Part shown: positions 46,721-48,306 of the stretch, in pieces
How the letters are laid out: every line of letters starts with the position of its first letter
Position numbering within the stretch: the stretch's first letter is position 1
Assembly (NCBI RefSeq): GCF_013752535.1
Contig: NZ_CP058348.1
Span: 2,852,001 to 2,916,000 of the forward strand
Direction: 5' to 3'
Source: Bdellovibrio sp. KM01
Lineage (GTDB): Bacteria; Bdellovibrionota; Bdellovibrionia; Bdellovibrionales; Bdellovibrionaceae
Length of the DNA stretch: 64,000 nt
Notes under the pieces: generated by a model
What the model was told of the DNA's origin: nothing
Databases searched by the model: none
Seen by the model: only the letters and a program-made list of their open reading frames with translations
Made by a program: the position numbers and the translations under genes

Positions 46721-46890
46721 AAAAATCCCCAATCAAAAAAAATCACAGCAGCCCAATTTCCACTGCCACTTCGGTCGCTGCCCGCATCCAATAAGCCAAA
46801 ACTAACATTCACAGAGAACAAATCCATCTCCGCTTCGGTAACCGCATGCGTCACGAAAAAACCGCCAGGCACCTTTCACAGCTCCCCGAA

Positions 46891-46925
46891 AAAAAATGGC
46901 CCCAAAGGGGCTCATTTTTCAGCAG
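46891..46925 (-). terminator. Intrinsic terminator of the gap-pgk unit
   Basis: The stem GAGCCCC/GGGGCC-like with AAA loop (minus-strand AAATGAGCCCC...GGGGCCATTT) and a T-run of eight on the minus strand, about 160 bases beyond the pgk stop. Confidence 0.8.
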
Positions 46926-46980
46926 CAAAGCCACTCTCCGATCCCCGTCTCCCTCTCCGACCCTAGCCAGCTGTTCAAAA

Positions 46981-47081
46981 GGTGCGCTAAAGCTTGAGCG
47001 CAGCCGAGGCGCAAGGAGGAAGGCGTACGCCTGTACGCCGACGACGAAGCAACGAAGGATCCGCTCAAGATCTAGCGGACC
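46981..47081 (-). repeat. Three-part inverted-repeat structure directly after pgk
   Basis: The outer stem pairs 46981-46989 with 47073-47081 (8 of 9), then after a symmetric 3-base internal loop 46993-47000 pairs perfectly with 47062-47069. Inside, 47022-47028 and 47033-47039 form a perfect 7-bp hairpin (GGCGTAC/GTACGCC, loop GCCT). On the minus strand it starts two bases after the pgk stop, in the mRNA 3' region. This looks like a dispersed intergenic repeat or a stabilising/regulatory RNA element; no second copy was seen in the window. Confidence 0.75.
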
Positions 47082-47082
47082 T

Positions 47083-48306
47083 TTATTCGTAGTTGCTGGC
47101 TGGGCGCACCTTCGTGCGAAGGATTTCCAAGCCCGGCAATTTATCACCTTGAAGGTATTCAAGGGACGCACCACCACCTGTAGAGATGTGAGTCATTTTA
47201 TCTGCATAACCAGACATTTCAGCTGCTGCTGCAGAGTCACCACCACCAACGATTTTTGTCGCATTCGATTCAGCGATCGCCTTAGCAACGCCGAAAGTCC
47301 CTTTAGAGAAAGCTGGATTTTCAAAAACGCCCATTGGACCGTTCCAGAAAATAGTTCCCGCTTCTTTAAGAGCCGCAGAGTAATTGCGGATCGTTTGAGG
47401 ACCGATATCCAAAGCCATTTCGCCATCAGGGATTACAACGTCTTTTGTCGTGTGAGCATTCGCCACATCACCAAAGGCTTTCGTCGCAACGTGATCCACT
47501 GGAAGCAAAATAGTTTTGTCACGAGCTTGAATACGCTCGATCATTTCTTTGCAATAGCGAACCTTGTCAGTTTCAACCAACGAGCTACCGACAGACACAC
47601 CTTGAGCTTTCAAGAATGTGTAAGCCATAGCTCCACCGATAATGAAACCGTCAACGATGTCCATCAACTTTTCGATAACCGGCATTTTGTCAGAAACTTT
47701 TGCACCACCCATGACTGCGATGTAAGGGCGTTTTGGATTCGTCAAAAGTGAATCCAGCATGTTGATTTCTTTTTCGATCAAGAAACCGATGCCTTTTTCT
47801 TTCATCACCGATGGCAACGCATGAATCGTTGCGTGTGCACGGTGGGAAGCACCGAACGCGTCGTTGATGTAGATCTCCGCGTAGTTTGCGATTTTTTGCG
47901 CGAACTCGATGGAGTCTTTTGTTTCGCCTTCTTCAAAACGGACGTTTTCAAGAAGGATCAACTGATTCTTTTTCAAAGAAGGCAGCAAGTGAACGGGAGC
48001 ATCAGAGTCTGGTTCTTCAACCAGGATCACTTCTGCATTCAAGTGCTCTTGAAGACGTTTTGCAACGGGCTCCAAGGAGAACTCTTTGTCGTCTTTCGTT
48101 TTCGGACGACCCAAATGCGAAGCCATAACGATCTTCGCACCATGTTCCATGCAATACTTAATTGTTGGAAGAGAAGCCGTGATACGGTTTTCATCCGTGA
48201 TCTTGCCACCTTCCATGGGAACGTTCAGATCCAAGCGCAGGAAAACAACTTTGCCTTCCAACGCGAAATCACGAACGGTTTTAATACCTTTAAGACCTGC
48301 GCTCAT
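47083..48306 (-). CDS. pgk: Phosphoglycerate kinase
   Basis: The 407-residue enzyme makes ATP from 1,3-bisphosphoglycerate. RLDLNVPMEGGKITDENRI (substrate loop, quoted in part: LDLNVPM), ASHLGRPK, the hinge AVMGGAKVSDK and the nucleotide site VGGGDSAAA are clear. It starts three bases after the gap stop with AAAGG upstream, so gap-pgk is a unit. The C-terminus ends at 47083, directly before a large inverted repeat. Confidence 0.97.
   Translation of the reverse strand: MSAGLKGIKTVRDFALEGKVVFLRLDLNVPMEGGKITDENRITASLPTIKYCMEHGAKIVMASHLGRPKTKDDKEFSLEPVAKRLQEHLNAEVILVEEPDSDAPVHLLPSLKKNQLILLENVRFEEGETKDSIEFAQKIANYAEIYINDAFGASHRAHATIHALPSVMKEKGIGFLIEKEINMLDSLLTNPKRPYIAVMGGAKVSDKMPVIEKLMDIVDGFIIGGAMAYTFLKAQGVSVGSSLVETDKVRYCKEMIERIQARDKTILLPVDHVATKAFGDVANAHTTKDVVIPDGEMALDIGPQTIRNYSAALKEAGTIFWNGPMGVFENPAFSKGTFGVAKAIAESNATKIVGGGDSAAAAEMSGYADKMTHISTGGGASLEYLQGDKLPGLEILRTKVRPASNYE

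What the first reader, a model, noticed from the sequence alone, without database searches (positions are those of the whole stretch)
46981..47081. Strong three-stem inverted-repeat element starts two bases after the pgk stop
Outer stems of 8/9 and 8/8 bp separated by a symmetric internal loop, plus an inner perfect 7-bp hairpin, within 101 bases. Position at the mRNA 3' end suggests an RNA stabiliser, an antisense/regulatory RNA or a mobile intergenic repeat. The motif GTACGCC-hairpin with GAGGCGCAAGGAGG on its flank looks like a dispersed repeat of the sort found after genes in several proteobacteria.
Basis: seen in the sequence. Interest (0 to 1): 0.6.

Follow-up and report, generated by a model that had tools for sequence, protein, structure and literature searches.

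The report
Replication-polarised dispersed DNA hairpin family
The hairpin after the pgk gene is one of about 20 type I copies (plus a dozen or more of a longer relative) of a dispersed palindromic element whose pairing is conserved by evolution, and nearly every copy points the same way relative to DNA replication, which suggests a mobile element that works through single-stranded DNA rather than a switch belonging to pgk.

Summary
In detail: 46978-47084 folds into one long hairpin (z -4.45) that overlaps the pgk stop codon. It is a dispersed family. The own genome has 20 type I copies; 19 of 24 genomes of the genus have them; a longer type II and looser relatives occur in several phyla. A ~50-nt purine-rich core (isolated G-C pairs and purine loops under a GGCGTAC/GTACGCC hairpin) is conserved. 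The outer stem has almost any sequence but stays paired: 22 of 27 pairs show double compensatory change among copies, 15 of 31 at one orthologous site.

Two unexpected results. Stem mismatches are strand-asymmetric: on the purine strand G-U outnumbers A-C 143:32 (63:9 in other phyla), so this strand is the one selected to fold, whichever way neighbouring genes run. Copies are oriented by replichore: type II 127/136, type I 93/108 (44 of 47 independent sites), the folding strand lying on the leading-strand template. Sites are cleanly present or absent between close relatives.

Best reading: a non-autonomous mobile (or excisable) hairpin acting as folded single-stranded DNA, not a pgk-specific RNA. 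No enzyme was identified. No Rfam match; no published description found in the searched library.

The parts
46978..47084 (+). Whole type I hairpin element; the plus strand is the purine-core (folding) strand
   Evidence: Fold z -4.45; covariance model R1 match at G000:2898982-2899078, 91.3 bits
46978..47000 (+). Left arm of the outer stem (variable in sequence between copies, compensated)
   Evidence: Paired with 47062-47084; compensatory changes against orthologous copies L039 and L040
47006..47054 (+). Conserved core GAGGCGCAAGGAGGAAGGCGTAC-GCCT-GTACGCCGACGACGAAGCAACG
   Evidence: Conserved in 32 aligned copies; isolated pairs covary
47022..47039 (+). Apical hairpin GGCGTAC/GTACGCC with a 4-nt loop
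   Evidence: compensated in other copies
47062..47084 (+). Right arm of the outer stem; overlaps the pgk stop codon
47083..48306 (-). pgk (phosphoglycerate kinase) ORF, 407 aa; the element lies at its 3' end
   Evidence: orthologues in all 24 genomes searched
46898..46912 (-). Intrinsic-terminator-like hairpin between the element and tpiA (separate from the element)
   Evidence: Terminator scan, both strands

Best explanation
The element is a copy of a dispersed, non-autonomous hairpin element of roughly 95-165 bp, mobile or at least cleanly gained and lost. SHOWN: many copies; pairing conserved through compensatory change; the purine-core strand is the one whose pairing is kept; orientation follows the replichore; whole units, outer stem included, are cleanly present or absent between relatives. 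INFERRED: it acts as folded single-stranded DNA at replication forks. [quoted passage not shown] The outer stem diverges copy by copy while the hairpin is kept. Its place just after pgk reflects tolerance of such units at gene 3' ends, not pgk regulation.
For: Copies and structure; orthologous covariation at tuf/tRNA, 15 of 31 pairs doubly changed. Folding strand: G-U 143 against A-C 32 with strand-neutral alignment, 63 against 9 in other phyla; same ratio whatever the gene direction; purine strand more stable as DNA in 135 of 147 copies. Replichore polarity: type II 127/136, type I 93/108, 44 of 47 independent sites and 14 of 14 between convergent or divergent genes. Presence/absence: pgk site, clean empty sites between G000 and G012 with 4-8 bp repeats at some. 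Several closely similar units at terminators in a Geobacteraceae genome. attC parallel: PMC11023631.
Against: No transposase or recombinase identified. Many sites are old and shared by several species, which also fits a host function. Direction (gain or precise loss) was not polarised at the empty sites. IS608-type ssDNA transposition uses the lagging-strand template for the active strand (PMC6006769), which does not fit the simple form. G007 (1/4 and 1/4) and type I in G018 (1/3) and G016 (4/7) do not follow the polarity. G-U tolerance would also fit an RNA made from the purine strand.
Confidence: 0.55

Rival explanations
1. Structured RNA element: the hairpin acts in transcripts, at mRNA 3' ends as a stabiliser, processing site or terminator, or as a small RNA from the purine strand.
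For: Close to gene 3' ends (median 16 nt); strong covariation with G-U pairs tolerated; conserved at some operon junctions such as tuf/tRNA; elements of other phyla carry an A-tract and T-tract in the outer stem.
Against: The purine strand is antisense to both neighbouring genes twice as often as sense (66 against 33); G-U excess does not follow the transcribed strand; orientation follows replication even where genes are convergent or divergent (14/14); no T-tract after the stem in type I; no Rfam match.
Confidence: 0.22
2. A REP-like repeat moved by RAYT (Y1 HUH) transposases of the host.
For: 12 Y1 genes in the own genome, 10 in G012; type II elements lie shortly after RAYT genes at G000 535 kb and 2850 kb and, by coordinates, at G022 641 kb and 1138 kb, plus one type I copy after a Y1 gene in G005, always with the purine strand as RAYT sense.
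Against: RAYT flanks carry their own repeat GGGGTATCGGTCA/TGACCGATACCCC; G013 has 12 type I copies and no Y1 gene; no Y1 relative found by tblastn in 870 kb around elements of other phyla; length and ends differ from GTAG/CGTC REPs.
Confidence: 0.12
3. A host chromosome-polarity signal (in the manner of Chi, KOPS or Ter sites) that acts as a hairpin and is kept in one orientation by selection.
For: Near-absolute replichore polarity in most complete genomes; conserved orthologous sites with compensated stems.
Against: Only tens of copies per genome, clustered near gene 3' ends; 5 of 24 genomes of the genus have no type I match; copies are gained and lost between close relatives.
Confidence: 0.1

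Closest known systems
attC sites of sedentary chromosomal integrons (PMC11023631)
   Same: Imperfect hairpin of variable sequence, recognised as folded single-stranded DNA; the recombinogenic strand sits on the leading-strand template in the conserved orientation
   Different: No R boxes (RYYYAAC/GTTRRRY) at the ends by eye; the conserved part is the apical core, not the ends; copies are dispersed singly over the chromosome and not arrayed between cassettes
GTAG- and CGTC-tagged REPs (PMC3733652)
   Same: Intergenic palindromes near gene 3' ends, between co-directional and convergent genes; in some species inserted in longer palindromes
   Different: REPs are 20-40 bp with a tag at one end, often in inverted pairs; this element is about 95-165 bp with a long variable outer stem and a fixed orientation relative to replication; no dedicated RAYT shown
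MITEs
   Same: Short non-coding units with terminal inverted repeats that are cleanly present or absent; short flanking direct repeats at some sites
   Different: Inverted arms differ from copy to copy in Bdellovibrio; no partner transposon found; replichore polarity
IS200/IS605 (IS608, ISDra2) ssDNA transposons (PMC6006769)
   Same: Folded single-strand ends and strand polarity relative to replication
   Different: They encode the transposase and act on the lagging-strand template; here the folding strand is the leading-strand template and there is no gene
Multicopy intergenic sequences of Geobacter (PMC2700814, PMC2996986)
   Same: Intergenic, partly palindromic, multicopy; [quoted passage not shown]
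   Different: Alignments are only in supplementary files that could not be read here; no structure, strand or replication analysis in the passages read; identity with this family not established

Membership tests
GTAG/CGTC REP repeat | 20-40 bp palindrome with an unpaired GTAG or CGTC tag at one end | tested here: not met
   Units are about 95-165 bp; CGTC occurs inside the core (CGTCGTCGGCGTAC on the pyrimidine strand), not as a terminal tag
GTAG/CGTC REP repeat | Association with RAYT genes (GTAG type) | tested here: inconclusive
   Elements after a few RAYT genes but none near elements of other phyla, and G013 has copies without any Y1 gene
Integron attC site | Conserved R boxes at the ends of the hairpin and cassette arrays | tested here: not met
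   Ends are variable and no boxes were seen by eye in the aligned copies; copies are single and dispersed. No attC search program or integrase search was run
Integron attC site | Recombinogenic folded strand kept on the leading-strand template in large chromosomal arrays | tested here: met
   Folding strand by G-U asymmetry and its polarity: works like attC in this respect; recombination itself not tested
MITE | Terminal inverted repeats and target duplication | tested here: inconclusive
   Inverted arms present; 4-8 bp direct repeats at some empty-site comparisons and none at others
MITE | Partner transposase recognising the ends | not tested
Intrinsic terminator | G+C-rich hairpin followed by a T-tract | tested here: not met
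   No T enrichment after the stem over 147 type I copies; an A-tract and T-tract occur inside the outer stem of relatives in other phyla
Known structured RNA (Rfam 15) | Match to a covariance model | tested here: not met
   No match at E up to 5 for the window copy; only tRNAs in 16 loci with relatives

The most novel reading that the evidence does not exclude
A previously undescribed class of gene-less mobile element, spread over several phyla, that moves as a folded single strand at replication forks, with its folding strand confined to the leading-strand template (nascent lagging strand), and that can insert at transcription-terminator hairpins and duplicate them.
Probability: 0.35. Interest if true: 0.85.

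Novelty: new variant of a known kind. Interest (0 to 1): 0.62.

Why it matters
Small dispersed palindromes are usually treated as mRNA 3'-end or terminator elements. Here the strand that is kept foldable and the orientation of nearly all copies are set by replication and not by transcription, which points to single-stranded DNA as the working form. If the fork-coupled mobility is real, it adds a cross-phylum family of gene-less mobile elements that relies on an unidentified enzyme, and it gives two simple sequence signatures (G-U versus A-C asymmetry and replichore polarity) by which other dispersed hairpins can be sorted into RNA and ssDNA elements.

Tried and rejected
Rfam on the window copy and 16 related loci: nothing but tRNAs. 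Blastn against plasmids and phages: none. RAYT as mobiliser: elements after a few RAYT genes, absent in other phyla. The idea that the outer stem is simply the target palindrome: rejected in general because the stem is part of the unit that is absent at empty sites, though some targets are palindromic (AGCACTCGTGCT, GGTCCAGCTAGACC). That G022 shows the pre-insertion state at pgk: unlikely, because the more distant G010 has the element. The thought that the Geobacteraceae inserts all sit at head-on genes: not supported by ORF calls. Literature searches found no description of this family. A first fuzzy-regex script timed out.

Full report
OBSERVATION. The window copy spans 46978-47084 and folds as one long hairpin with an apical 7-bp stem and three outer stem blocks (z -4.45). 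pgk is on the minus strand and its stop codon (47083-47085) overlaps the outermost pairs. A separate terminator-like hairpin lies at 46898-46912, between the element and tpiA.

FAMILY. Blastn finds 10 copies in the own genome; 22 of 60 genomes searched (own and relatives) have copies. An alignment of 32 copies shows a conserved core AAGGCGCRAGGAGGAAGGCGTAC-N3-7-GTACGCCGACGACGAAGCAACGCAG and outer arms of very different sequence. RNAalifold gives 27 pairs, 22 with double compensatory changes; the covariation score is 0.504 against 0.142 in shuffles and at most 0.188 in slid controls. A covariance model finds 20 copies in the own genome, up to 24 in a congener, none in 5 of 24 genomes of the genus, and matches in 42 of 144 genomes of the phylum. 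A longer type II (extra stem between core and apex, GCRAGGCGGAGG...GGCGTRC) has 12 exact-pattern copies in the own genome. Most of those inspected fold as the same kind of hairpin, often with an A-tract and T-tract in the outer stem; a few hits may be chance. One Methylomirabilota MAG has 107 exact matches, a Syntrophus MAG 38.

CONTEXT. Of 147 distinct type I copies, 99 lie between co-directional genes (66 with the purine strand antisense to them, 33 sense), 26 between convergent and 12 between divergent genes; the rest were cut off. Median distance to a neighbouring gene 3' end is 16 nt (simple ORF calls, so approximate). There is no T-tract after the stem.

CONSERVATION AND TURNOVER. Flank clustering gives 90 site clusters, 25 of them with more than one member. 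At the tuf/tRNA site 11 orthologues show 15 of 31 pairs with double changes, so pairing is maintained at fixed sites. At pgk the element is in G000, G012 and G010, a type II element is in G006, G022 keeps only one arm as a simple palindrome, and the others have nothing recognisable. Between G000 and G012 whole units are cleanly present or absent. Examples: GGTCTAGCTAG-[unit]-CTAGACC against GGTCCAGCTAGACC; AGCAC-[unit]-CGTGCT against AGCACTCGTGCT; 8-bp repeats at two other sites; and a type II unit GCAGGCTGTTGAAAAAGG...CCTTTTTGAACAGCCTGC absent as a block. Which of these are gains and which precise losses was not resolved.

WHICH STRAND FOLDS. With arms aligned by a scoring that treats G-T and A-C alike, isolated stem mismatches on the purine strand are 143 G-U and 32 A-C (p 6e-18); in 73 elements of other phyla 63 and 9 (p 4e-11). 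Copies are partly related, so the p-values are optimistic. The ratio is the same for copies antisense and sense to genes (94:33 and 44:15, on an alignment that itself leans towards G-U). The purine strand is the better folder as DNA in 135 of 147 copies. So pairing is kept on the purine strand whatever the direction of local transcription.

REPLICATION POLARITY. Strands of copies are partitioned along the chromosome. dnaA lies at position about 400 in G000, G012, G005, G002, G013 and G006, and the window (73% round) has negative GC skew on the plus strand, as expected with the origin at 0. With dnaA frames and the terminus assumed halfway, type II follow one polarity in 127 of 136 cases and type I in 93 of 108. 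After collapsing orthologous sites 44 of 47 type I sites agree (p 2e-10), and 14 of 14 copies in convergent or divergent contexts; the exceptions with both neighbours called all have the purine strand sense to both genes. The purine strand is the leading-strand template, equal in sequence to the nascent lagging strand. In a Geobacteraceae genome with dnaA at the start, 6 of 8 copies agree, too few for a test.

MECHANISM. Strand-specific folding plus replichore polarity, both largely independent of transcription, point to folded single-stranded DNA as the working form (inference). [quoted passage not shown] Two routes can give the polarity: fork-coupled insertion of one strand, or loss of copies whose folding strand is on the lagging-strand template. 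The data do not separate them. IS608-type transposition uses the lagging-strand template for the active strand (PMC6006769), which does not fit the simple form. In the Geobacteraceae genome several closely similar units lie between two copies of a terminator-like palindrome, which suggests insertion at terminators with duplication; this was not followed further. No enzyme is identified; RAYT genes are weak candidates.

VERDICT. The pgk-related RNA readings are not supported. The family resembles REPs, MITEs and attC sites but fails a defining feature of REPs and of attC sites.

Noticed in passing
46855-46876: GAAAAAACCGCCAGGCACCTTT (reverse complement AAAGGTGCCTGGCGGTTTTTTC) resembles the repeat that flanks one RAYT gene of the same genome on both sides (AAAAAGGTGCCTGCCGGTTTTTGG, locus L373).
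   Followed up: no
46898-46912: Terminator-like hairpin GCCCCTTTGGGGC with T-tracts on both strands between the element and tpiA: a likely bidirectional terminator of pgk separate from the element.
   Followed up: partly
G000 genome, e.g. L375, L376, L378-L381: 12 Y1 (RAYT-type) genes of at least three kinds in the own genome, one kind flanked by many copies of a short repeat GGGGTATCGGTCA/TGACCGATACCCC.
   Followed up: partly
L177 and L201 (genome G013, 2255615-2255942 and 2398697-2398971): Two tandem triplets of type I elements at spacings of about 115 and 100 bp.
   Followed up: no
L042 near 1481-1577 and L197 near 1606-1698: Variant copies with an extra hairpin inserted on the 5' side between outer stem and core, making a three-way junction.
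   Followed up: no
L465-L470, L473-L475 (Geobacteraceae genomes G192 and G210): Closely similar units of about 165 bp lie between two copies of a terminator-like palindrome, a different palindrome at each locus.
   Followed up: partly
L234 (genome G006), just 3' of pgk: A type II element lies directly after pgk in G006, at the position where the window genome has a type I copy.
   Followed up: no
L358, L360, L362, L364, L366: Five contigs of the viral collection carry full elements; whether they are phage DNA or host DNA was not examined.
   Followed up: no
L209 and L211 (genome G029): Pairs of type I elements about 110 bp apart in opposite orientation.
   Followed up: no
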